Shown here one piece after another: positions 1,185-28,187 of a stretch of 28,564 nt of DNA. The DNA comes from a virus. The notes beneath the pieces were generated by a model, which worked only from the letters and a program-made list of their open reading frames with translations, was not told the origin of the DNA and ran no database searches. The position numbers and the translations under genes are program-made. Numbering within the stretch: the stretch's first letter is position 1; each line of letters opens with the position of its first letter. Location of the stretch: the IMG/VR virus record IMGVR_UViG_3300034375_000081, positions 1-28,564 of that record; one strand, written 5' to 3'.

Positions 1185-3914
1185 ATGACAATTAAGTTTG
1201 CAAATCGTGTAAAAGTAAATACATCTACTACAGGAACAGGTACTATAACACTTGGTTCTGCAGTAGGTGGGTTTCAAACTTTTGCTCAAGGTGGTATCCT
1301 TAATGGTAACTCAGTACGCTACACAATTATTAATGGTAACAACTGGGAAGTAGGCACAGGAGTCTACACCCATAGCGGAACCACTATGTCAAGATCCTAT
1401 GAGGAAAGCTCTACAGGGTCTTTACTTAATTTAGTAGGTGAATCAGAAGTATTTATTACTACGTCTGCTACAGATATTGAAAACTTAGGTAATCGCTCTA
1501 TTGATTATTTTTACTTTACTGCTACATCTGGTCAAACAGCATTTACAGGTAATGATGATAATAGCAACCAACTAGCATTTTTTGAAGATAACGTATTAGT
1601 ATTTCTTAACGGTATTGTCTTAGAAGGTGGCGGTACAGATTACAGTGTTTCAGGTGGTGATACTGTTACTCTTAGTACAGGTGCTACTGTTTCAGATGAG
1701 TTAAATATTGTAGCGTTTAAGTCTTTTACTGTAGCTGATGCTGTACCTAAATCTACTGGTGGTCAGTTTGATGCTAACGTAGACTTTGCTGCAGGTATTG
1801 ACGTTACAGGTAATATTACTGTTACTGGTACGGTAGATGGTAGAGACGTAGCTACAGACGGTACTAAGCTTGATGGGATAGAGGCTGCTGCAACTGCAGA
1901 CCAGACTGCTGCAGAAATACGTAGTTTAGTTGAATCTGCTACAGATAGTAATGTGTTTACGGATGCTGATCATTCTAAATTAGATGGTATAGAAGCATCT
2001 GCTACGGCAGATCAGACAGGCGCAGAAATAAAAGCTTTGTACGAAGCAGAAGCTAATGCTTACACAGATACTAAAGATACTAAGCTGTCAGGTATTGAAA
2101 CAGGTGCTACAGCAGATCAGACTGCTGCAGAGATTCGTGTTCTTGTAGAGTCAGCTACAGACAGTAACGTTTTTACTGACGCTGATCATAGTAAGCTTAA
2201 CGCTATTGAAGCAGGGGCAACTGGTGATCAAACTAACGCTGAAATCAGGGCGGCGGTAGAAGCAGCCACAGACAGTAATGTTTTTACAGACGCAGACCAT
2301 ACTAAACTAAATGGTATTGAAGCTAGTGCAGATGTAACAGATACTACTAATGTAACTGCTGCTGGTGCCTTAATGGATAGCGAGGTTACTAACCTAGCAC
2401 AAGTTAAAGCATTTGATAGCTCTGACTATGCTACAGCCGCACAAGGTGCTACTGCTGATGCTGCACTGCCTAAAGCTGGCGGCACTATGACGGGTAATAT
2501 TAATTTAGGAGACAACGACAAAGCCATCTTTGGCGCTGGGTCTGACCTCAGCATTTATCATGACAGTGTAACAAACAACAGCTATATCGCAGAGACTGGC
2601 ATTGGCGATTTAGTTCTTCAGGGTGCCAATATTCGCCTTGAGAATACGTCTGGTAATTATTATGTACGGGCGTACAACGGTGGTGCTGTTAATCTGTACC
2701 ACAACAACTCCCAAAAACTCGCCACCACCAGCACAGGTATTGACGTAACAGGCAACGCCACCTTTGCAGATAATGGTAAAGCCATCTTCGGCGCAGGGTC
2801 TGACCTACAGATTTACCATAGTGGAGCAGCTAGTTTTATCTCAGACCAAGGCACTGGAAACTTAAAAGTTTTAGCTCAAGATTTTGCAGTAAATAACCCT
2901 GCCGATAGCGCAAATATGATTACTGCTGAAGTTGGTGGGGCGGTAACTGCTTTTTACGACGGAGGCATCAAACTCGCCACCACCAGCACAGGGGTTTCAA
3001 TTAGTGGCAATATCGCAGCAAGCGGAACCATTGATGGTCGTGACGTTGCGGCTGATGGCACAAAGCTAGATGGCATAGAAGCTTCTGCTAATGTTACAGA
3101 TAGTGCAAACGTAGGCACTTCTCTTACTGGCTTCCCTACTAATACGGACGCAACAGGTTCAGATCTTATTCCTGTATATGATGTGTCTGCTAGTAGATGG
3201 GAAAAGCAAACAATTACCAATGCGGCATTGCAAGGCCCAACTGGGCCTACGGGTCCAACAGGCCCAGCGGGGGCTAATGGTGCTACCGGGCCTACAGGCC
3301 CAACTGGTCCAGCGGGGGCTGATGGTGATGATGGTTCTACTGGACCTACGGGGCCGACAGGACCAACAGGACCAGCAGGAGCTAACGGTGCTACAGGTCC
3401 AATAGGTCCAGCAGGTCCAACTGGCCCTACTGGGGCAACGGGTCCAGCAGGTGCTGATGGGAATGATGGCGCTACTGGACCTACGGGGCCGACAGGACCA
3501 GCGGGATCTAACGGTGCTACTGGTCCAATAGGACCAATAGGACCAACTGGCAATACAGGACCAACTGGAAATACAGGCCCAACTGGCGGTACAGGACCAA
3601 CTGGGCCTACAGGTCCAACTGGACCAACTGGTCCGACTGGATCTGCCCCTTCTACAGCCTACGGTGCAGTAGGTACTTATGTTTTTGCTCACTGGCTTAA
3701 CGCAGGTTCAAAAACTCAAGGTACTACTGTGAGTGGCTCTTCTCTTTACCCAGCTAACGGCTATGGCAACTCAGATGTCGTTGCGGGGTACTATACTGGC
3801 GGAGGTTCATTGTCGGGCACATGGCGTCTTATGGGGGCACTGGGTTATTACAGCGGCACCATTTCGATTAATCGTGTTGACTTTCGAGTTTCCGTTTTTG
3901 TGAGGATTTCCTAA
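1185..3914 (+). CDS. Tail fibre 1 with collagen-like Gly-X-Y tract
   Basis: A 909-aa modular fibre. Residues 1-105 form an N-terminal domain ([13 protein letters not shown]...) of the kind that attaches many marine phage fibres. Residues about 225-385 carry repeats built on [18 protein letters not shown]. Residues about 440-615 hold two copies of a module with [10 protein letters not shown] and LATTSTG motifs. Residues 684-821 are 46 consecutive Gly-X-Y triplets, mostly GPT, with proline only at X. Residues 822-909 are a globular tip ending SVFVRIS. The role is adsorption to the host surface, with the tip as the likely receptor-binding part. The start follows AAGGATA at 1171. The stop overlaps the chaperone start (TAATG), indicating coupled expression. 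Codon use changes over about 2500-3030, suggesting a recombined module. Confidence 0.9.
1858..2340 (+). repeat. LDGIEA/ATADQT protein repeats in fibre 1
   Basis: Degenerate tandem units with the core [33 protein letters not shown]. The DH motif recurs at 1968, 2184 and 2295. The 111-nt spacing of the last pair is one 37-residue unit; the 216-nt gap contains one variant unit ([14 protein letters not shown]). The DNA copies differ mainly at silent positions, so the protein pattern is better conserved than the DNA. Confidence 0.85.
2509..3021 (+). repeat. Duplicated [10 protein letters not shown] module in fibre 1
   Basis: Two related modules. Each begins D(N/-)[14 protein letters not shown] and ends KLATTSTG followed by a short (V)TGN or SGN turn. 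They are near-identical at the ends and unrelated in the middle. C-ending codons (GCC, ACC, AAC, CTC) are more frequent here than in the flanking parts of the same gene. Confidence 0.7.
3234..3647 (+). repeat. Collagen-like tract of fibre 1 (46 Gly-X-Y triplets)
   Basis: Forty-six uninterrupted triplets. GPT dominates, with [24 protein letters not shown] and a final GSA. Proline occurs only in the X position and threonine dominates Y. Charged GAD/GDD/GND clusters recur at intervals. A collagen-like triple helix is expected, matching the trimeric state of tail fibres. Confidence 0.95.
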
Positions 3915-4330
3915 TGAGAATTACAATCACACAAGTCCGTAATGCGGCATCACTTCAAGCTGATAACCTTCGCATGGATGTTGAGATCAACCACCCAGAC
4001 TATGGTTGGATACCTTATACTGTAGACCCCTCTGATACAGATGAAACTATCGACAATGATGCTGTCATGTCTTTAATTGGTAACAGTTTTGAACCATATA
4101 TTGCGCCAACTCAAGACGAGCTTGATGCAGAAGCGGCAATAGATGTTAGATTTGCGAGAGATGCTAAATTGGCAAACGATGTTGACCCAATAGTATCTAA
4201 TCCTTTGCGATGGAATGAGCTTACTGATGCTCAACGTACATCATGGACCCAGTACAGGACAGACTTACTTAATATTCCCCAGCAAGCAGGGTTTCCACAT
4301 GATGTAACTTGGCCTACGAGGCCAACATAA
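3914..4330 (+). CDS. Tail fibre assembly chaperone 1 (Phage_tail_APC-like)
   Basis: A 138-aa protein with the layout of phage tail assembly chaperones. The N-terminal part (ITITQVRNAASLQADNLRMD... GWIPYTVDPSDTD) is unusual. The C-terminal half has the family signature: a charged helix (VRFARDAKLANDVD), then NPLRW, then W-TQYRTDLLNIPQQAGFP, ending in WPTRP. These proteins help fibre folding or trimer assembly and usually sit directly after the fibre they serve. Here the ATG overlaps the fibre 1 stop (TAATG). It is about three quarters identical to the second copy at 6768-7184 (35 differences in 138 by direct comparison), so each fibre has its own partner. It could also be a structural fibre cap. 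Confidence 0.8.
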   Translation: MRITITQVRNAASLQADNLRMDVEINHPDYGWIPYTVDPSDTDETIDNDAVMSLIGNSFEPYIAPTQDELDAEAAIDVRFARDAKLANDVDPIVSNPLRWNELTDAQRTSWTQYRTDLLNIPQQAGFPHDVTWPTRPT

Positions 4331-4354
4331 AAAAACACACAATAAGGATAACTT

Positions 4355-4903
4355 ATGAACAACATAAGACAAAACTGGCAGCTATTTTCTGCTGCACTAT
4401 CAGAAGATATAGTAGACAATATTGTAAAGCAAGCTGGTGAAACAGCAGAAGCTTCTACCTTTAATAGTAGTGGTGCAGATATACGGAAGAGTAAAGTAGC
4501 TTGGCTTACAAATAATAAACCAGTATTAGATTTACTTTATGACTTTGTAGACATAGCAAATAAAAATGCTTTTAATTCCCATATTTATAAAAAAGCTGAC
4601 ATACAGTTTACAGAATACTTAGGCTCAGAAGGCGGTCACTACTCTTGGCACCACGATATTGATTGGAACCGCAATGACGGTTTAGATCGTAAGCTATCTG
4701 TAACTGTACAACTCTCTCATGTAGATGAATATGAAGGTGGTGACTTTTCTTTTAGCGAGTGCACATCACCTGACCCAGTAGTAAGTAAACAAAAGGGTAC
4801 AGTATTAGTATTTCCTTCATACTTACAACATGCAGTACAACCCGTAACGAGTGGAACACGAAGAAGTTTAGTAGCTTGGTTTGAAGGCCCAAAGTGGGTT
4901 TAA
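4355..4903 (+). CDS. 2-oxoglutarate/Fe(II)-dependent oxygenase (P4H/PKHD-like)
   Basis: A 182-aa protein with a full double-stranded beta-helix oxygenase core. The iron ligands are H99 and D101 (in YSWHHDID) and H159 (in LQHAVQPV). The 2-oxoglutarate-binding arginine is R169 or R170 in SGTRRSLVAWF. An EGGDFSF turn and a GTVLVFPSYLQH strand sit where the prolyl-4-hydroxylase superfamily has them. It would hydroxylate a protein side chain (or less likely a nucleic acid) using O2 and 2-oxoglutarate, and no catalytic residue is missing. It stands between two collagen-like fibre/chaperone cassettes, separated from them by only 24 and 17 nt, which suggests that the fibres are its substrate. Its start has AAGGATA at 4344. 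The chemistry is well supported; the substrate is inference. Confidence 0.9.
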   Translation: MNNIRQNWQLFSAALSEDIVDNIVKQAGETAEASTFNSSGADIRKSKVAWLTNNKPVLDLLYDFVDIANKNAFNSHIYKKADIQFTEYLGSEGGHYSWHHDIDWNRNDGLDRKLSVTVQLSHVDEYEGGDFSFSECTSPDPVVSKQKGTVLVFPSYLQHAVQPVTSGTRRSLVAWFEGPKWV

Positions 4904-4920
4904 CTAAATAGGATACGTAG

Positions 4921-6768
4921 ATGACCAGTAAGGCAAGAGAGTTAGCAGATCTTTTAGATTCTAGCGGTAACATTAAAGCAAAATCAGGTAGGACTACACA
5001 GGGTCGTAACTTGGCTAATGATGGTACTAAGTTAGACGGTATTGAAGCTAATGCTACTGCAGATCAAACGCACTCAGAAATTCGTGCCTTAATTGTTGCT
5101 GGTAGTGATACTAACGTTTTCACTGACGCTGATCATACTAAGCTAGATGGTATTGAAAGTGGGGCTACTGCTGACCAAACAGATGCAGAAATAAGGGCAG
5201 CAGTAGAAGCAGCTACAGATAGTAATGTCTTCACTGATGCTGACCATGCTAAACTTAACGCTATTGAGGCGGGTGCTACTGCTGACCAAACAAATGCTGA
5301 GATTAGAGCAGCAGTAGAAGCGGCTACAGATTCTAACGTTTTCACTGATGCAGATCACTCTAAGCTAGATGGTATAGAAGCAGGTGCTACTGCTGACCAG
5401 ACTAAAGCTGATATTGATGCACTAAACATTGATGCAGATACTTTAGATGGTAAGCAACTAGCTACTATTGAATCTGAGTATCAGTCTTATGCAGATACTG
5501 CAGCAGCTAACGTAGTTGACTCAGCACCTGCTGCACTTAACACACTTAACGAATTAGCTGCAGCATTAGGCGACGATGCTAACTTTGCTACAACTACAGC
5601 AACTAGCTTAGGAGAAAAACTACCTAAGTCTGGTGGTCAAATGACTGGTAACATTACTATGTCAGGATCACAAACTGTAGACGGTAGAGACTTATCTGTA
5701 GATGGTGCAAAGCTGGATGGCATAGAAAGCGGTGCTACTGCTGACCAAAGCGCTGCAGAAATAAGATCATTAGTAGAAAGCGCATCTGATAGTAATGTGT
5801 TTACTGATGCAGATCATAGTAAATTAAATGGAATTGAAGCGTCAGCTAATGTTACAGATAGTGCGAATGTAGGTTCGTCTCTTACAGGGTTTCCTACCAA
5901 TACAGATGCAGTATCTAGTGATTTAATTCCAGTGTATGATGTTAGTGCAAGCAGATGGGAAAAGCAGACTATTGCTAATGCAGCTTTGGTTGGACCTACA
6001 GGACCGACTGGTCCTACGGGCGCTACTGGACCTACGGGTCCACAAGGAGCAACAGGCCCAACAGGAGCTACTGGCGCTGCAGGTTCAGACGGTGATGATG
6101 GAGCTACTGGGCCTACGGGGCCAACTGGACCAGCGGGTAACAATGGTGCTACTGGACCAGCGGGTAACAATGGTGCTACTGGACCAACGGGGCCGCAAGG
6201 ACCACAGGGCGGCACTGGGCCTACTGGTCCTACTGGGCCTACGGGGCCAACTGGACCTACTCCTAACCATCAATGGTCAGGTTACTCTTTACGTTTTTAT
6301 AACGGATCTTCTTGGGGTAGCTATGTAAATTTAAGAGGTGCTACAGGTGCTACTGGACCAACGGGGCCGCAAGGACCACAGGGCGGTACTGGTCCGACAG
6401 GACCAACAGGACCACAGGGCGGCACTGGTCCGACAGGACCAACAGGACCACAAGGAAACTCTGTTACTGGTCCAACTGGTCCTACTGGACCGCAAGGACC
6501 AACAGGTAGCACAGGTCCAACTGGTGCAACAGGCCCTGCTGGGCCAACCAACACAGGGTATGCTCAAGTTGGCACTTATGCACTTCTTGGGGATAACAAC
6601 GGATCACCTCTTACCGCTGGGTCCACTATAGCTGGTTCAAGCCTTGATAAGTCTTATTCAGTTTACAACTTTCAGTATACGAACATAAGTCCCCCGTCAG
6701 GGACATGGCGCGCTATGGGCTATAACGGCAGTAGTGTAGCGGGAACACTATTTGTGAGGATTTCATAA
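4921..6768 (+). CDS. Tail fibre 2 with interrupted collagen-like tracts
   Basis: A 615-aa fibre paralogous to fibre 1 but with a different, shorter N-terminus ([20 protein letters not shown]). LDGIEA/ATADQT repeats run from about residue 34 to 170, with another copy at about 260-305. A segment nearly identical in protein to fibre 1 ([17 protein letters not shown]) leads into 30 Gly-X-Y triplets (358-447). A 25-residue W-rich insert with [14 protein letters not shown] follows, then 23 more triplets broken once by Val-Thr (473-543). The tip ends SGTWRAMG...LFVRIS like fibre 1. It likely forms a trimeric adhesin. The stop overlaps the second chaperone (TAATG). The upstream ribosome site is AGGATA at about 4911. 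The absence of the fibre 1 N-terminal domain suggests a different attachment point on the virion. Confidence 0.88.
5020..5410 (+). repeat. 37-residue LDGIEA/ATADQT repeats in fibre 2
   Basis: The DADH motif recurs at 5131, 5242 and 5353, exactly 111 nt (37 residues) apart. Each unit reads roughly [37 protein letters not shown]. An additional diverged unit lies at about 5700-5845. The same unit occurs in fibre 1. Confidence 0.88.
5992..6549 (+). repeat. Two collagen-like tracts of fibre 2 around a W-rich insert
   Basis: The first block, 5992-6261, has 30 Gly-X-Y triplets, mostly GPT with GPQ, GAT, GNN and GGT. An insert at 6262-6336 encodes 25 residues rich in W, Y and S. The second block, 6337-6549, has 23 triplets broken once by a Val-Thr pair after GNS. 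Proline is found only at X. The DNA itself is repetitive (ggaccaacagg-type units) and is a plausible recombination site with fibre 1. Confidence 0.93.
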
Positions 6769-7184
6769 TGAGCATTACAATCACACAAATCCGTAACGCG
6801 GCATCACTACAGTCTGACAACCTTCGTATGGACGTAGAGATTAACCACCCTAACTACGGTTGGATACCCTACACGGTAGACCCTGCTGACACTGACACAA
6901 CCATCGACAACGATGCTGTCATGGCTCTGATTGGTTCTAACTTCACCGCATATGTAGCCCCGACACAGGCTGAATTAGACGCAGAAGCTGCGGAGCAGGT
7001 TCGTGCTGAACGTGACGGTAAGCTGGTTGAAGAGGTTGACCCTATCGTAACCAACCCTCTGCGTTGGGCTGACTTGACCGCAGCAAAGCAAGCTGAGTGG
7101 ACACAGTATCGCACTGACCTTCTTAACATCACAGACCAAGCGGGCTTTCCGCACAATGTAATTTGGCCTACTAAACCTGCATGA
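6768..7184 (+). CDS. Tail fibre assembly chaperone 2 (Phage_tail_APC-like)
   Basis: A paralogue of the 3914-4330 product with the same 138-aa length. The N-terminal 52 residues are nearly identical. Differences concentrate in the middle (56-63 and 76-110), the charged helix and the segment around the conserved NPLRW. The C-terminal signature TQYRTDLLNITDQAGFPHN ending WPTKP is kept. The ATG overlaps the stop of fibre 2 (TAATG). C-ending codons are more frequent than in copy 1 (ACC, AAC, GAC, ATC), so the copies differ strongly at silent sites although the proteins are about 75% identical. It probably assists folding of fibre 2 specifically. Confidence 0.8.
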   Translation: MSITITQIRNAASLQSDNLRMDVEINHPNYGWIPYTVDPADTDTTIDNDAVMALIGSNFTAYVAPTQAELDAEAAEQVRAERDGKLVEEVDPIVTNPLRWADLTAAKQAEWTQYRTDLLNITDQAGFPHNVIWPTKPA

Positions 7185-24482: not shown

Positions 24483-24713
24483 TCATTCTCCTTTCAAGAG
24501 TTTTTTCAGGTCTGAGTAACCACCTATGTGATTACCTTCTATATCCCATATTTGGGGTACAGTCTTTATACCTGACTTCTTAAATAAGTCAAGTAACCAC
24601 TTAGAGTCATTGAGAGAGTAGTACTGAACAGCAATACCACTATCCCTCAATAAACCCATAGCTTTGGAGCAGTGAGGGCAGTCAAGCCGCCCCACTAATG
24701 TATACACACTCAT
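24483..24713 (-). CDS. grx: Glutaredoxin
   Basis: A 76-aa thioredoxin-fold protein. The redox pair is C12-P-H-C15 in RLDCPHCSKAM, the cis-proline loop is TVPQIW (P53), and the glycine pair is GG (64-65) in HIGGYSDL. This is the complete glutaredoxin signature at usual phage size. It would return electrons (from glutathione or a host reductase) to the ribonucleotide reductase encoded just upstream. The two genes overlap by 4 nt (ATGA), so they are translated together. CPHC rather than CPYC at the active site is a small variation that may affect redox potential. Confidence 0.93.
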   Translation of the reverse strand: MSVYTLVGRLDCPHCSKAMGLLRDSGIAVQYYSLNDSKWLLDLFKKSGIKTVPQIWDIEGNHIGGYSDLKKLLKGE

Positions 24714-26605
24714 GTCAGATCTACCAACTCACAGGAATCACCCGTACACGCCATAGTCTGACTACCTGCAGTATTGTCTTCGCTTTCGTACTCAGTAAGC
24801 TCTGACCAAGCAATGCTGGTAGGCATCTTAGCTAAAAGCTCTTCGTACTTTTCCTTGGTGCAGTCCTGATAAGGTGCTTGCTGATATGTGTGATCCGTAT
24901 GCGGTAAGAATGACACACCAGACATCTCATCAAAGTGCCTATACACAAATGCACCCACTTCCATCCACTCAGCATCCCGTACTGAGATTGTCACACTTGG
25001 CTTATGTTCACACCAATGTCGCTGATACGTAAGCCACAACTCTAGCTGCTCAATGGCTGTCATATCATTACGTGTAACCGCATTATCAGGTGACTTTATA
25101 GGAAAGCTAAATACTGTAGTAGTGTCACCCTTCATTACACAAGGCTCATTAGGAATGCCTTTGTCTTTCATAAACTGTGTTAGCGGATCTTTATTATCAC
25201 CGCGCACAGTACGGATATAATAGGCACTGTGGCGAGCATGTATGCCACTGGCGCTATCCACCAATTGTGATACCGTGCCCGAAGGTTTGACGCATGTAAT
25301 TGCTGCAGATACAGGTATATTAAGCATACCAGCAAATTCAGCGTTAGTATTAACAGCCACACTACGTAAATGCTCAAGAGTCTGCTCCAATCCTTGATTC
25401 TTAGGTGTCATTAGAGGATTATCCATAACACCTGTAAGTGATACGCCAAGTAAGCGCTCTTCTTCTGTGTTCTTCTGCCATACTTTACGCAAGTAAGGAA
25501 ACTTAGTGTAAGTAGACTGTACTGTACCAAGAATAGTAGCCAGACGTACCTTACGCTCTAAGTCATCAATAGTATCTGTAGCACGTACAACAACTTCCGT
25601 TAAGTTGCAGAATTGATACGGGCGTAAGCTTATCTCAGAACATGGATTGCAACCAAACTCATGGTTAGGGTCACGGCGTCCGTGCTTGACTGCTAGATCA
25701 ACACAGGCTTGACGGTTGAACACTCCACGCTCACCTGATTTAGATGCTACAAGGGCTGTCCACTCACGCATGAATGTCTCCATGTCAGGCTTCTCTGTGT
25801 ACCCTACACTGTTGTTAGCTAAGGCTCTCCACGGCGCTGTTTCCCACCACTGACCTGACTTAGCGTGGCGCATACGGTCATCACTCAGGTTAGACAAACT
25901 AATCATAGCACTACGGCGAACACCACCTACGACAACGATCTGACCAATGAAGCACATAAGATCATGGCACTCAATGCTAGATAGCTTACGTCCTTGTGCA
26001 GCTTTGAAGGTTGAGATAGCAAAGTTAAATAATTCAACTAAGGGCGCTGGGCCACTTGCTCTACCACCAAACGTTTTAAGCCTAGAACCTGCAGGACGTA
26101 CCAATCCAATATCCCACTGAGGGATTTCACCAGCCCAAAGGAGTGCCAACAATTGTCTGAAAGCTTTAGCCCAACCTTCCTTACTGTCTTTGACAACGAT
26201 TGTAGTCTCACTATCGAAGAGTTGAGGTATTTCAGGGAGCTTACTAACGTACTGTCTCTCGACGCTGAAACCGACACCAGTACCACACAAGAGGATGTAC
26301 ATAGCCTCATCGAAGGACTTAGGGTCATCTACGGGTAGATAGCTGCAGTTATAGCCAGCAGTGTTATCTCTATCTAAAGCTGGGCCAGCAGTCATCAGCG
26401 CTCGCATAGAGGGCATGATGTCTGTGTTAAGTATAGCAGACTCAATCTCTCTGCAAATCTTAGGGTCTAGCAGTGAATTAACTACATTGATCATGTAGCG
26501 CTCTACTGTGTCTGTCCAAAACTCACGCCCGTAACCATCATAGTATTTGGCATAACGTGATTTGTGTATAAATGTCTGGTAGTCTGTTGGTAGTAGGTTG
26601 CTCAT
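24710..26605 (-). CDS. nrdJ: Ribonucleotide reductase, class II (adenosylcobalamin-dependent), monomeric type
   Basis: A 631-aa enzyme converting ribonucleotides (triphosphates in the Lactobacillus relative) to deoxyribonucleotides. It aligns by motif with the Lactobacillus leichmannii enzyme: C87 (GYNCSY) corresponds to C119. NPCSEISLRPYQFCN gives radical cysteine C322, E324 and partner C333, with the same 2- and 11-residue spacing as C408/E410/C419. The C-terminal C620-x4-C625 is the electron-relay pair. It is about 100 residues shorter than the Lactobacillus protein (739 aa), so a regulatory part may be reduced. No R2 gene is needed, but vitamin B12 is. An internal AGGAGA precedes the ATG, which overlaps the MazG stop by 4 nt. 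It makes dNTPs for phage replication from host RNA precursors. Confidence 0.95.
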   Translation of the reverse strand: MSNLLPTDYQTFIHKSRYAKYYDGYGREFWTDTVERYMINVVNSLLDPKICREIESAILNTDIMPSMRALMTAGPALDRDNTAGYNCSYLPVDDPKSFDEAMYILLCGTGVGFSVERQYVSKLPEIPQLFDSETTIVVKDSKEGWAKAFRQLLALLWAGEIPQWDIGLVRPAGSRLKTFGGRASGPAPLVELFNFAISTFKAAQGRKLSSIECHDLMCFIGQIVVVGGVRRSAMISLSNLSDDRMRHAKSGQWWETAPWRALANNSVGYTEKPDMETFMREWTALVASKSGERGVFNRQACVDLAVKHGRRDPNHEFGCNPCSEISLRPYQFCNLTEVVVRATDTIDDLERKVRLATILGTVQSTYTKFPYLRKVWQKNTEEERLLGVSLTGVMDNPLMTPKNQGLEQTLEHLRSVAVNTNAEFAGMLNIPVSAAITCVKPSGTVSQLVDSASGIHARHSAYYIRTVRGDNKDPLTQFMKDKGIPNEPCVMKGDTTTVFSFPIKSPDNAVTRNDMTAIEQLELWLTYQRHWCEHKPSVTISVRDAEWMEVGAFVYRHFDEMSGVSFLPHTDHTYQQAPYQDCTKEKYEELLAKMPTSIAWSELTEYESEDNTAGSQTMACTGDSCELVDLT

Positions 26606-26988
26606 CTATTGTCTCCTGAACCCTTTAGCTTTCCGCGCTGTTCTCTGTCATCCAGCTTTGCCATATTCATTTCCATAGTCTTCTTTAAGTTACCGCCAAA
26701 GATGTTTGATAATGCAACAACGTAGAACAGTACATCCCCCAACTCTTTCAGTACATCTTCATCACTAAACTTACCTTTGTCACGAAACAGTTTCTTTATC
26801 TTTTCTGCAACCTCACCTGATTCCCCTACAAGACCCAAAGTGTTTTCTACTAATCTTTCTCGCCCCTTAGTAAAAACTTTGTCTTCTACAAATTGGCTGT
26901 AGAAACGTAGTGGGTCATTATCCCAATCAGGGCTGTTCTGAAACATGTCAAAGTAACCAAATGCTTCTAAATCTGTCTCGTTAATCAT
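26602..26988 (-). CDS. mazG: MazG-like nucleoside triphosphate pyrophosphohydrolase
   Basis: A 128-aa protein with the all-helical MazG fold signature: GLVGESGEVAEKIKK gives E56-x-x-E59, and KELGDVLFYV gives E82-x-x-D85, the four metal-binding acids. An extra ~45-residue N-terminal part (FGYFDMFQNSPDW) is common in marine phage versions. The enzyme cleaves (d)NTPs to monophosphates plus pyrophosphate. In phages it may sanitise the pool or alter host stress nucleotides; sequence does not decide. A perfect AAGGAG lies upstream within the preceding 57-aa gene, which it overlaps by 3 nt (26985-26988 ATGA junction). Confidence 0.92.
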   Translation of the reverse strand: MINETDLEAFGYFDMFQNSPDWDNDPLRFYSQFVEDKVFTKGRERLVENTLGLVGESGEVAEKIKKLFRDKGKFSDEDVLKELGDVLFYVVALSNIFGGNLKKTMEMNMAKLDDREQRGKLKGSGDNR

Positions 26989-27158
26989 TGCCGCTCCTTA
27001 ACTATTAAATTTCTTATAGATACATCATCTACATCATACATAATATTTGTTATTAGGTCATATACGTCTTCTTGATGATGCTCGTCAGATGAAGATAGAA
27101 TGTTGTTTTCTTCATCTACGTTTAACATAAACATAACACTGAATGTCTTGTCGTTCAT
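26985..27158 (-). CDS. Small acidic protein of unknown function, 57 aa
   Basis: The frame between DUF3310 and MazG begins MNDKTFSVMFMLNVDEENNI. It is very acidic in the middle (DEHHQEDVYD; YDVDDVS) and ends RNLIVKERQ. Both junctions are ATGA overlaps: its ATG overlaps the DUF3310 stop and its TGA overlaps the MazG start. AAGAGAA lies just upstream. The gap-filling, doubly overlapping layout is strong evidence that it is translated. No fold or function is recognised. A role with DNA- or nucleotide-metabolism proteins is suggested only by the neighbours. Confidence 0.72.
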   Translation of the reverse strand: MNDKTFSVMFMLNVDEENNILSSSDEHHQEDVYDLITNIMYDVDDVSIRNLIVKERQ

Positions 27159-27382
27159 TTGTGATTCTCTTTGTAGTTATCTATTAGCCAACCTAAGTAT
27201 ACCTGCGCCTTCTCTAAGTCTTCTAGGCCATTCTTATACTCGTGACGCCAAACATATTTCAGTACATTACCAGCCATGTATGCGCTTGTACCGTCCATCT
27301 TACAGGTCATAGCACGTATAGCTTCTATACACTCTATCCCAGCTTGGTTATAGTGTACGGGTTTATTTACAGGATCTGCCAT
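27155..27382 (-). CDS. DUF3310 protein
   Basis: A 75-aa protein with the DUF3310 signature: DPVNKPVHYNQAGIECIEAI at the start, and GNVLKYVWRHEYKNGLEDLEKAQVYL at the end. The same domain is part of T7 gp1.7, a nucleotide kinase, but the small stand-alone form lacks any visible kinase motif, so enzymatic activity should not be assumed. It sits in an operon of nucleotide genes. The ATG overlaps the previous stop (TAATG) with AAGGAAG upstream. Confidence 0.88.
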   Translation of the reverse strand: MADPVNKPVHYNQAGIECIEAIRAMTCKMDGTSAYMAGNVLKYVWRHEYKNGLEDLEKAQVYLGWLIDNYKENHK

Positions 27383-27753
27383 TAAGCGCTTCCTTGTGTT
27401 TTAGTGAATGCGTTAAGGGTATACACATTACCTTTTTTGCTGTAAAGATCTTTCTTTTCTTCTTCTGATACTTCTCTTTCAGCAGCAGCATATTGTTCAG
27501 GAAAAATATCTTTTAGCATAACCTGTTTATACTCAACAAGCTCTTCCTCAAAATCAGGGTAATCCGATAGAAAGGTTAGAGACGCCGCCATAGATAGCGC
27601 AGCATCGAAAGCGGCATGTGCGGCTGGCATAGGTGCAGATGAGATAGCCCCAAAGGCTAAACCTGTAGCTAACTCAAGTGTCCAATTACCATCTTCGTCC
27701 ATTATAGGTTTTACAATAACAGCAACTTCATCATCTTTTACTTCGTAAGACAT
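27382..27753 (-). CDS. Protein of unknown function, 123 aa
   Basis: No recognised domain. The N-terminal part is strand-like (YEVKDDEVAVIVKPIMDEDG NWTLELATGL). A small-residue helix (SAPMPAAHAAFDAALSMAASL) follows, then an acidic helical part and a short basic end. The ATG at 27753 is preferred to the GTG at 27756, because AGGA then stands 7 nt upstream; the ATG also overlaps the endonuclease stop by 1 nt (TGATG). The A-rich helix is amphipathic, not a membrane span. Located with nuclease and nucleotide genes, it may be an accessory protein; this is only context. Confidence 0.65.
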   Translation of the reverse strand: MSYEVKDDEVAVIVKPIMDEDGNWTLELATGLAFGAISSAPMPAAHAAFDAALSMAASLTFLSDYPDFEEELVEYKQVMLKDIFPEQYAAAEREVSEEEKKDLYSKKGNVYTLNAFTKTQGSA

Positions 27754-28187
27754 CACTTCTTCCTTTGTGTTTTGAGTGCTACTCTTTCGCTTTTACAGCG
27801 TCTGCCTCTTTCTTCTAGCCACTCTACAGGTATTAACCTATGTGACCACAAGAAGCCATATTTATCACACCAGTTATAGTAGCGAGATTTGGCTCCTTTA
27901 TACAGCTTGGCATTAGAGTTACTAAATACAAAGCGTATGTCTAATTCTGGATGCTGTTCCTTTATTGCTAAGTGTTTTCGTCTATCTTCACTATCAAAGA
28001 TACCTTTTGTTTCAATGAAGATACCATTGTCTAACTCAAAGTCAGGTGTGTATGTACGATAGCGCAGGTCTTCCCATTCTATCTTTATTTTTTCATACAG
28101 CACCTTCTTCTGATGCTTTTTAAGAAATGCAGCGGCCTCTCTTTCAAGGCCACTACGATACCTTCTGGTATTATGGTTTCTAGGCAT
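27753..28187 (-). CDS. Endonuclease I (T7 gp3-like Holliday junction resolvase)
   Basis: A 144-aa PD-(D/E)XK nuclease. Active-site residues align with T7 gp3: E15 (SGLEREAA), D49 (YTPDFEL), E59 and K61 (FIETKG), with the same 10 and 2 residue spacing as D55/E65/K67. The segment EDRRKHLAIKEQHPELDIRFVF and the tail around KSRYYNWCDKYGF are typical of the family. It resolves branched replication and recombination DNA and, in T7, helps degrade host DNA. Its ATG overlaps the end of the Cas4-like nuclease by 8 nt. Confidence 0.93.
   Translation of the reverse strand: MPRNHNTRRYRSGLEREAAAFLKKHQKKVLYEKIKIEWEDLRYRTYTPDFELDNGIFIETKGIFDSEDRRKHLAIKEQHPELDIRFVFSNSNAKLYKGAKSRYYNWCDKYGFLWSHRLIPVEWLEERGRRCKSERVALKTQRKK

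What the first reader, a model, noticed from the sequence alone, without database searches (positions are those of the whole stretch)
3914..6768. Prolyl-hydroxylase-like oxygenase sits between two collagen-like fibre cassettes
The order is fibre 1 (46 Gly-X-Y triplets), chaperone, 2OG/Fe(II) oxygenase with intact H99/D101/H159/R169, fibre 2 (53 triplets), chaperone. P4H-family enzymes hydroxylate proline in proteins, and collagen is their classical substrate. A phage that modifies its own adhesins after translation would be unusual. Caution: all prolines are in X (GPT, GPA, GPQ, GPI), never in Y where classical P4H acts. The substrate could be X-proline, threonine or asparagine, another virion or host protein, or the link could be accidental.
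Basis: partly seen in the sequence, partly recalled or inferred. Interest (0 to 1): 0.72.

Follow-up and report, generated by a model that had tools for sequence, protein, structure and literature searches.

The report
Phage enzyme likely modifies collagen tail fibres
A sea-water bacterial virus carries, beside its two collagen-like tail fibres, an enzyme of the kind that hydroxylates proline in animal collagen, and comparison with many relatives suggests that this enzyme, and in some relatives a second collagen-type enzyme, modifies the virus's own fibres.

Summary
In detail: fibre 1 (46 Gly-X-Y triplets), chaperone, 2OG/Fe(II) oxygenase with H99/D101/H159/R169, fibre 2 (53 triplets), chaperone; 63 prolines in X, none in Y. 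The link looks non-accidental. Of 80 viral loci fetched by the oxygenase alone, 69 have a Gly-X-Y run within 5 kb (71 if broken runs count; the other 9 are cut within 925 bases upstream). Of 115 motif-fetched phage 2OG loci, 2 do. In 9 of 14 sphingomonad-type loci a homologue neighbours a collagen-like lipoprotein. AlphaFold places the enzyme nearest to prolyl hydroxylases. Many relatives (not the window) carry a second gene: a procollagen-lysine-type enzyme (GT25 + PLOD glycosyltransferase + 2OG). Enzymes and neighbouring fibre sequence match. Prolyl-type only: X-Pro 62-83% per cluster, Y-Lys about 0. Both: X-Pro 13-61%, Y-Lys 11-44%. PLOD-like only: X-Pro 0-9%, Y-Lys 21-38%. Best reading: phages mature collagen tail fibres with collagen-type enzymes; the window has the proline-only version, acting on X-proline. 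Nothing was measured chemically; supported independent contrasts are few (5, all agreeing); SAR116-type homologues lack collagen; most GPT-pattern fibres lack the enzyme nearby.

The parts
1185..3914 (+). collagen-like tail fibre 1, 909 aa
   Evidence: PF01391 2.4e-18; PHROG tail fibre families
3234..3647 (+). Gly-X-Y run of fibre 1: 46 triplets, 29 X-Pro, 0 Y-Pro
3914..4330 (+). tail fibre assembly chaperone 1, 138 aa
   Evidence: PF16778 1.1e-11; phrog_4628 3.7e-28
4355..4903 (+). prolyl-hydroxylase-like 2OG/Fe(II) oxygenase, 182 aa
   Evidence: PF13640 1.3e-15; AlphaFold pLDDT 93.6; nearest folds are prolyl hydroxylases
4649..4657 (+). Fe-binding H99 and D101 codons
   Evidence: role by family knowledge
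4829..4831 (+). Fe-binding H159 codon
   Evidence: role by family knowledge
4859..4861 (+). 2OG-binding R169 codon
   Evidence: role by family knowledge
4921..6768 (+). collagen-like tail fibre 2, 615 aa
   Evidence: PF01391 9.2e-18
5992..6261 (+). Gly-X-Y run 1 of fibre 2: 30 triplets, 18 X-Pro
6337..6462 (+). Gly-X-Y run 2 of fibre 2: 14 triplets, 9 X-Pro
6469..6549 (+). Gly-X-Y run 3 of fibre 2: 9 triplets, 7 X-Pro
6768..7184 (+). tail fibre assembly chaperone 2, 138 aa, 75% identical to chaperone 1
   Evidence: PF16778 5.2e-12

Best explanation
The oxygenase is a phage-encoded, prolyl-4-hydroxylase-like Fe(II)/2-oxoglutarate enzyme that hydroxylates X-position proline (mostly Gly-Pro-Thr) in the collagen-like shafts of the phage's own tail fibres, most likely while the chains are unfolded and before they trimerise, so that the triple helix is more stable. 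It is the simplest form of a wider phage system. In many relatives a second, procollagen-lysine-type enzyme (galactosyltransferase-like GT25, PLOD-type glycosyltransferase and lysyl-hydroxylase-like domain in one chain) is encoded just downstream and would hydroxylate and glycosylate Lys in the Y position. Shown here: gene linkage, predicted fold, conserved catalytic residues, purifying selection, and the match between enzymes present and residues present in the neighbouring fibre. Inferred: the chemical reaction, which carbon is hydroxylated (4-Hyp or 3-Hyp), timing, and the stabilising effect.
For: (1) Linkage: of 80 oxygenase-fetched viral loci 69 have a run of 8 or more triplets within 5 kb, 71 with broken runs, upstream in 68 of 69, median 855 bases; unbiased 2OG loci 2 of 115. 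(2) Same-lineage control: of 37 adaptor-fetched loci with at least 4.5 kb upstream, oxygenase+collagen 6, neither 29, collagen only 2, oxygenase only 0; Fisher p 1.2e-5 (the 6 include near-identical genomes). (3) Different backgrounds: different head and terminase families among linked contigs, T4-like cyanophages S-CAM9 and S-PRM1, sphingomonad-type chromosomes beside a collagen-like lipoprotein in 9 of 14 loci. (4) Fold: best VIA matches are the viral collagen prolyl hydroxylase 5c5t (Z 17.8) and P. putida P4H 4iw3 (Z 17.7). (5) In the clade, PLOD-like gene present in 24 loci/13 clusters with Y-Lys 0.11-0.44, absent in 59 loci/15 clusters with Y-Lys 0-0.01. Scan chosen on the PLOD-like gene alone: X-Pro 0.13-0.51 in 22 loci/8 clusters with the prolyl-type gene, 0-0.09 in 33 loci/8 clusters without. 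(6) GC and background Pro/Lys use do not explain the separation.
Against: No chemical evidence. Gains and losses are few: on trees PLOD changes 7 times (3 supported pairs) and the prolyl-type gene 3 times (2 supported pairs); all 5 agree, but neither sign test can reach 0.05. X-Pro does not need the enzyme: of 120 loci drawn by a (GPT)4 pattern 97 have a run and no 2OG in the stretch held, 16 have both, 7 have no run, and collagen without the enzyme in the window's own lineage has 42% X-Pro (L151/L160). SAR116-type chromosomal homologues (44-50% identical) have no PF01391 match in their genomes, several of which are single-cell or metagenome assemblies. L692, L709 and L724 carry an oxygenase plus PLOD-like gene without Gly-X-Y within 5 kb, and L481 (clade member) has none in the stretch held. 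By sequence the nearest solved proteins are PKHD-type hydroxylases.
Confidence: 0.74

Rival explanations
1. The oxygenase does act on the collagen-like fibre but on another residue, for example Thr in Y or Asn/Asp in X or Y, giving a hydroxylated side chain that may be a glycosylation site.
For: Y-Thr is the commonest Y residue in the window's fibres (65 of 99); linked fibres have more Y-Thr than unbiased phage collagens (cluster median 0.62 against 0.14).
Against: Where the oxygenase is absent and only the PLOD-like gene is present, Y-Thr stays at 26-59% while X-Pro falls to 0-9%. Sphingomonad partners vary in Y (Thr, Ser, Gly, Ala) but keep Pro in X (where the search asked for at least half X-Pro). 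The fold is nearest to prolyl hydroxylases.
Confidence: 0.12
2. It modifies a host protein, for example elongation factor Tu as the P. putida prolyl hydroxylase does, or another virion protein, as a host-takeover gene parked in the fibre region.
For: The P. putida P4H-EF-Tu complex is the top Foldseek hit; PHROG class is 'moron, auxiliary metabolic gene and host takeover'; SAR116-type chromosomal homologues have no collagen partner.
Against: Linkage to collagen-like genes in different phage backbones and in sphingomonad-type chromosomes, and the match with fibre composition.
Confidence: 0.08
3. Hitch-hiking: fibre cassettes move as blocks and the oxygenase is a passenger without work on the fibre.
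For: Only a handful of independent gains and losses are supported; fibre and oxygenase come and go together in the adaptor lineage.
Against: Purifying selection, repeated association in unrelated genomes, and composition that follows the enzymes.
Confidence: 0.05

Closest known systems
vCPH, collagen prolyl hydroxylase of Paramecium bursaria Chlorella virus 1 (PDB 5c5t)
   Same: Small stand-alone viral 2OG prolyl hydroxylase; best VIA match (Z 17.8, rmsd 2.6, 159 aligned).
   Different: 23% identity over the aligned part; an algal virus, not a tailed phage; I did not test whether its gene lies beside a collagen-like fibre.
Bacillus anthracis P4H
   Same: Bacterial prolyl hydroxylase acting on collagen-like peptides, X and Y prolines (review passage PMC8968730).
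   Different: Cellular enzyme with Y preferred on (PPG)n; here partner fibres have Pro almost only in X.
PKHD-type hydroxylases (YbiX/PiuC, 3dkq, 9ghl)
   Same: Closest by sequence among solved structures (3dkq 1e-05).
   Different: Far below the NCBIfam equivalog cut-offs (best 54.3 bits against 143); VIA Z 15.9 against 17.8 for vCPH.
Human LH3/PLOD3, COLGALT1 and Mimivirus L230/R699 (for the gene next door in relatives, not in the window)
   Same: S-CAM9 protein: PLOD GT region to LH3 5.5e-33, GT25 region to COLGALT1 1.2e-19, C-terminal region to Mimivirus lysyl hydroxylase 1.3e-8; L075 model to LH3 by Foldseek 2.2e-26.
   Different: In the phage protein GT25 precedes the PLOD GT and 2OG domains in one chain of about 600 aa; found beside phage tail fibres.
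Collagen-like phage fibres (PF01391; E. coli prophage collagens of PMC3368898)
   Same: Gly-X-Y shaft in a phage protein.
   Different: That paper states that bacteria and viruses lack the prolyl hydroxylases needed for Y-Pro (passage read); here a hydroxylase-like gene is part of the cassette.

Membership tests
Prolyl 4-hydroxylase-type 2OG oxygenase | HxD...H iron triad and basic 2OG-binding residue | tested here: met
   H99, D101, H159, R169; conserved in 64 aligned sequences
Prolyl 4-hydroxylase-type 2OG oxygenase | jelly-roll fold closest to prolyl hydroxylases | tested here: met
   margin over PKHD-type structures is small (Z 17.8 against 15.9)
Prolyl 4-hydroxylase-type 2OG oxygenase | curated profile PF13640 above its cut-off | tested here: met
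   58.6 bits, cut-off 27; PF13640 covers more than prolyl hydroxylases
Prolyl 4-hydroxylase-type 2OG oxygenase | hydroxylates peptidyl proline | not testable with these tools
   needs biochemistry
Collagen-modifying enzyme | substrate is a collagen-like protein | tested here: inconclusive
   indirect: linkage and composition match; no direct assay
PKHD-type hydroxylase (YbiX/PiuC) | NCBIfam PRK05467 equivalog cut-off | tested here: not met
   best 54.3 bits against 143
Collagen-like tail fibre | long Gly-X-Y run in a tail fibre followed by an assembly chaperone | tested here: met
PLOD/LH3-type multifunctional enzyme (gene next door in relatives) | GT25, PLOD GT and C-terminal 2OG domain in one protein | tested here: met
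   10 of 10 proteins scanned (nine clade loci and L293) show all three; GT25 and PLOD GT above their cut-offs, the 2OG domain weak (E 0.005 to 5e-7, above its Pfam cut-off in 3 of 10). In the S-CAM9 protein PF13640 is not listed at E 0.01 but the region matches Mimivirus lysyl hydroxylase
PLOD/LH3-type multifunctional enzyme (gene next door in relatives) | present in the window | tested here: not met
   oxygenase and fibre 2 are 17 bases apart and the ORF list has no such gene beside them

The most novel reading that the evidence does not exclude
Tailed phages carry a modular, animal-like collagen maturation pathway (an X-proline hydroxylase and a one-chain lysyl hydroxylase/galactosyl-/glucosyltransferase) next to the fibres that it processes, in prolyl-only, lysyl-only and combined versions, and the fibre's Gly-X-Y code has co-evolved with the enzymes present. 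Virions would carry hydroxyproline and glycosylated hydroxylysine.
Probability: 0.62. Interest if true: 0.95.

Novelty: new variant of a known kind. Interest (0 to 1): 0.9.

Why it matters
Prolyl 4-hydroxylase is named among the abundant viral auxiliary genes of Baltic Sea water, and that paper says its use by viruses 'remains cryptic' (PMC9301287, passages read). This work gives one subclade of phage 2OG genes a specific, testable job: maturing the phage's own adhesins. If true it contradicts the statement that bacteria and viruses lack collagen prolyl hydroxylases (PMC3368898, passage), offers small enzymes for hydroxylated or glycosylated recombinant collagen, and shows that PHROG family 61, named only '2OG-Fe(II) oxygenase', contains a procollagen-lysine-type enzyme. 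Phage isolates with these genes exist, so it can be settled by mass spectrometry.

Tried and rejected
Considered and rejected: (a) that the oxygenase is any phage 2OG gene that happens to lie near tail genes: the motif-selected 2OG set rarely has collagen nearby (2 of 115 newly fetched loci). The scan also listed four loci that collagen scans had already fetched (L167, L196, L289, L396); three of these have a run within 5 kb and they are not in the 2 of 115. (b) That GC content or overall Pro/Lys use drives fibre composition: background Pro 3.8-4.0% and Lys 4.5-5.0% in all three groups, and the separation holds within the shared GC range; GC does correlate with X-Pro (rho 0.53). (c) Promoters and terminators: promoter-like matches not above shuffles (13 found, mean 16.2), terminator-like 9 against 5.0; nothing used. 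(d) Whole-record PF13640 in GPT-type against Lys/Gln-type collagen contigs: 22 of 100 against 10 of 100 over the cut-off (100 of 120 and 100 of 116 loci held); a weak contrast, and records are fragments.

Rows dropped and limits of the counts: oxygenase fragments under 140 aa were left out of the tree, which removed L028. L691 was left out of the X-Pro comparison because its 29 triplets are Gly-rich and not collagen-like. Twenty-four of 80 PLOD loci had no run of the required size: five have at least 5 kb upstream (L692, L709, L724, L732, L757; L732 has 28 triplets in short runs), the other 19 at most 2634 bases. L055 was lost to a filter but has 181 triplets, Y-Lys 0.29. L016 and L026 failed the 8-triplet filter but hold blocks of 5-6 mostly GPT triplets. 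In the 115-member clade set some contigs enter twice (oxygenase and adaptor fetches; GenBank and IMG/VR copies of cyanophages), and the window itself is in it twice (as window and as L001, which my script labelled 'adaptor'), so cluster counts are the ones to weigh. Thirteen of the 115 come from the GPT-pattern scan, which selects for X-Pro but not for Y-Lys. Trees were rooted at the midpoint. The prolyl-type gene was called at 130 bits or more of a clade profile; clade members score at least 163, but the highest-scoring 2OG protein outside the clade scores 221. The 22 loci used as 'with' score 228 or more; the exceptions L692, L709 and L724 score 196-216 and may not belong to the clade. In the adaptor control three further loci (L116, L118, L149) hold weak hits to other 2OG families without collagen. 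Composition of the sphingomonad runs includes antisense runs and is not used; one search is.

Recalled, from no call: that 4-hydroxyproline in X with Thr in Y stabilises model triple helices (Baechinger group) and that worm cuticle collagens carry Hyp in X; searches did not bring these papers. The novelty remark rests, whose lists were capped (25 of 98 shown; 15 of 36 shown).


Full report
WHAT IS THERE. The window is a 28,564-base viral record. Its tail structure protein is 77.5% identical to that of Roseobacter phage CRP-207 and 34% to that of Puniceispirillum phage HMO-2011, so I place it among HMO-2011-type podoviruses (inference). Genes run fibre 1 (1185-3914), chaperone (3914-4330), oxygenase (4355-4903), fibre 2 (4921-6768), chaperone (6768-7184), all on the plus strand; two neighbours overlap by one base and the gaps are at most 24 bases, with AGGA-like sites before the first chaperone, the oxygenase and fibre 2. 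Fibre 1 has 46 and fibre 2 has 53 Gly-X-Y triplets. Of 99 X residues 63 are Pro; of 99 Y residues 65 are Thr, none Pro, none Lys. Pfam calls are above their cut-offs for the five genes. The chaperones are 75% identical.

THE ENZYME. H99, D101, H159 and R169 are present and conserved among relatives. dN/dS is 0.05-0.13 in five comparisons. The AlphaFold model (mean pLDDT 93.6) has as best VIA matches the Chlorella-virus collagen prolyl hydroxylase 5c5t (Z 17.8) and P. putida P4H (4iw3 17.7), followed by PHD enzymes and algal P4H; the PKHD-type 3dkq comes at 15.9 (Foldseek). By sequence the nearest solved proteins are PKHD-type (3dkq, 1e-05), but the NCBIfam PKHD models are far from their cut-offs.

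IT TRAVELS WITH COLLAGEN. A scan of viral contigs with the oxygenase alone gave 80 loci (the best 80 of 228). Sixty-nine have a run of at least 8 Gly-X-Y triplets within 5 kb; L016 and L026 add broken runs, making 71; the nine without have at most 925 bases upstream of the gene. In the 69, the nearest same-strand run lies at a median of 855 bases, upstream in 68. Controls: (i) a motif scan for phage 2OG genes gave 115 newly fetched loci with a 2OG domain, of which 2 have a run within 5 kb by the same criterion, one of them (L454) in the window's clade; (ii) of 79 newly fetched loci drawn by the neighbouring adaptor protein, 6 hold the oxygenase and all 6 have collagen; 3 have collagen alone and 70 neither. 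With at least 4.5 kb upstream the table is 6 both, 0 oxygenase only, 2 collagen only, 29 neither, Fisher p 1.2e-5. The 6 include near-identical genomes, so they are not 6 independent cases. On a tree of 340 2OG clusters the window falls in a 36-cluster clade (support 0.95) of which 32 clusters have collagen within 5 kb, 3 lie at contig edges and 1 (L481) has none; some of these clusters were fetched by a collagen pattern. Linked contigs differ in head and terminase families and include T4-like cyanophages such as S-CAM9 and S-PRM1, where a Gly-X-Y run lies about 2.1 kb upstream of the oxygenase.

BACTERIAL COUSINS. A scan of one genome per species gave 49 loci. In 11 of 14 sphingomonad-type loci the contig also holds a protein with a lipoprotein-like start (my reading) and a GP[T/S/G/A] collagen domain; in 9 the run begins 441-1092 bases after the oxygenase on the same strand. 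The other two are L657 (about 10 kb away) and L658 (opposite strand); L660, L661 and L664 show none in the stretch held. In a further genome of the same family one of two copies lies next to a PF01391 protein. Against this, SAR116-type genomes carry a solitary homologue (44-50% identical) and no PF01391 match; overall 26 of 48 genomes have a match, 23 over the cut-off. These homologues branch among the phage enzymes.

A SECOND ENZYME IN RELATIVES. L481, the clade member without Gly-X-Y, led to the next finding: the overlapping gene is GT25 plus PLOD glycosyltransferase (PF25342 3.1e-61). The same kind of gene, about 600 aa with a C-terminal 2OG domain, follows the oxygenase in S-CAM9, S-PRM1 and other relatives. 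Against solved structures the S-CAM9 protein matches COLGALT1 (1.2e-19), LH3 (5.5e-33) and Mimivirus lysyl hydroxylase (1.3e-8) over successive parts. Its L075 homologue, modelled at mean pLDDT 83.8 but with uncertain domain packing (pTM 0.45), matches LH3 and Mimivirus R699 and L230. PHROG family 61, to whose C-terminal part the window enzyme also aligns, is this protein, annotated only as '2OG-Fe(II) oxygenase'. Eleven GenBank phage records hold it at E below 1e-20; where annotated, it is 'hypothetical protein' or '2OG-Fe(II) oxygenase'. The window lacks it.

ENZYMES AND FIBRE SEQUENCE MATCH. Within the clade, loci with the PLOD-like gene and a run (24 loci, 13 clusters) have Y-Lys 0.11-0.44; loci without it, with a run and at least 1.8 kb downstream (59 loci, 15 clusters) have 0-0.01. 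I then ran a scan chosen on the PLOD-like gene alone (80 loci, the best of 520). Fifty-six have a run; 55 of these have Y-Lys of at least 0.10, the exception (L691) not being collagen-like. With the prolyl-type gene (22 loci, 8 clusters) X-Pro is 0.13-0.51; without it (33 loci, 8 clusters) 0-0.09. In the prolyl-only clusters X-Pro is 0.62-0.83. The three states thus form a double dissociation. GC and background use of Pro and Lys do not account for it. The number of independent events is small: PLOD changes 7 times on the oxygenase tree and Y-Lys 7 times, 3 of 3 supported pairs agree; the oxygenase changes 3 times on the PLOD tree and X-Pro 3 times, 2 of 2 agree. Compared with phage collagens from an unbiased Gly-spacing scan without a 2OG gene (46 loci), linked fibres (21 clusters, collagen-selected sets left out) have more X-Pro (median 0.64 against 0.38) and GPT (0.45 against 0.02) and less Y-Pro (0.01 against 0.09).

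HOW IT MOST LIKELY WORKS. Late in infection fibre, chaperone and oxygenase are made together from one operon (inferred from spacing). The oxygenase uses Fe(II), 2OG and O2 to hydroxylate X-prolines of GPT triplets in the unfolded shaft (inferred); hydroxylated shafts trimerise into a more stable triple helix (inferred; model-peptide support is recalled only). Where the PLOD-like gene is present, Y-Lys is hydroxylated and glycosylated (inferred). The proposed X specificity differs from animal collagen P4H but has a precedent in B. anthracis P4H, which modifies X and Y (PMC8968730, passages read).

WHAT SPEAKS AGAINST. No chemistry was done. Most GPT-pattern fibres have no 2OG gene in the stretch held (97 of 113 with a run), so hydroxylation cannot be required for X-Pro collagen. 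SAR116-type homologues need another substrate. Three oxygenase-plus-PLOD loci lie in a different operon without Gly-X-Y within 5 kb, and L481 has none in the stretch held.

PRIOR WORK SEEN. PMC9301287 (abstract and passages): P4HA abundant in Baltic viruses, use 'remains cryptic'. PMC3368898 (passages): bacteria and viruses lack collagen prolyl hydroxylases. PMC7029224 (passages): collagen repeats in pelagimyophage structural genes. PMC2984593 (passage): an oxygenase among conserved cyanophage genes. PMC9611531 (passages): viral P4H transcripts in Lake Baikal. Among the papers listed (two lists capped) I saw none whose title, abstract start or read passages link a phage oxygenase to its own collagen-like fibre by genome evidence; PMC9301287 comes nearest, noting that collagen can be part of viral tail fibres. 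Subscription journals are mostly not held.

VERDICT. A real and functional-looking pairing: a new variant of a known kind (collagen modification, known in animals and in algal and amoebal giant viruses), in a setting, tailed-phage adhesins, where my searches found no earlier report.

Noticed in passing
L400:8561-10402 (S-CAM9), L022:2387-4174, L075:10519-12276, L164:2801-4621 (-): Procollagen-lysine-type enzyme (GT25 + PLOD GT + 2OG) in phages, annotated as hypothetical protein or 2OG-Fe(II) oxygenase.
   Followed up: yes
L646, L649, L650, L651, L652, L653, L655, L656, L662 (downstream of the oxygenase homologue): Conserved sphingomonad-type protein with a lipoprotein-like start and a GP[T/S/G/A] collagen domain beside an oxygenase homologue.
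   Followed up: partly
L631-L635, L641-L643: SAR116-type chromosomal homologues of the oxygenase in genomes without a PF01391 match; substrate unknown.
   Followed up: partly
L692, L709, L724, L757, L762: PLOD-like genes (with an oxygenase in the first three) in a different operon without Gly-X-Y nearby; neighbours include a protein with a cysteine motif that looks radical-SAM-like (recalled motif) and another of about 180-190 aa.
   Followed up: no
L300:3352-5736 (-), L367:2939-5224: ORFs of 795 and 762 aa with a C-terminal 2OG domain and another N-terminal part, in contigs fetched by a Lys/Gln-type collagen pattern.
   Followed up: no
L398, L401, L402 (RefSeq cyanophage and pelagiphage records): 2OG-domain genes annotated as ferrochelatase (L398, L401) or DNA endonuclease (L402), perhaps carried over from PHROG names 3531 and 2297.
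   Followed up: no
L682:7926-9695 (Roseobacter phage CRP-6 gp58): PLOD-like gene without the prolyl-type gene in the stretch held of a phage isolate; fibre X-Pro 0.06, Y-Lys 0.26.
   Followed up: yes
window 24483-28187 (-): B12-dependent ribonucleotide-reductase-like gene, glutaredoxin, MazG domain and phage endonuclease I in one stretch.
   Followed up: no
window 1185-3914 and 4921-6768: Both fibres share repeated '[17 protein letters not shown]' units before the collagen part, so the fibres look like duplicated or recombining modules.
   Followed up: no
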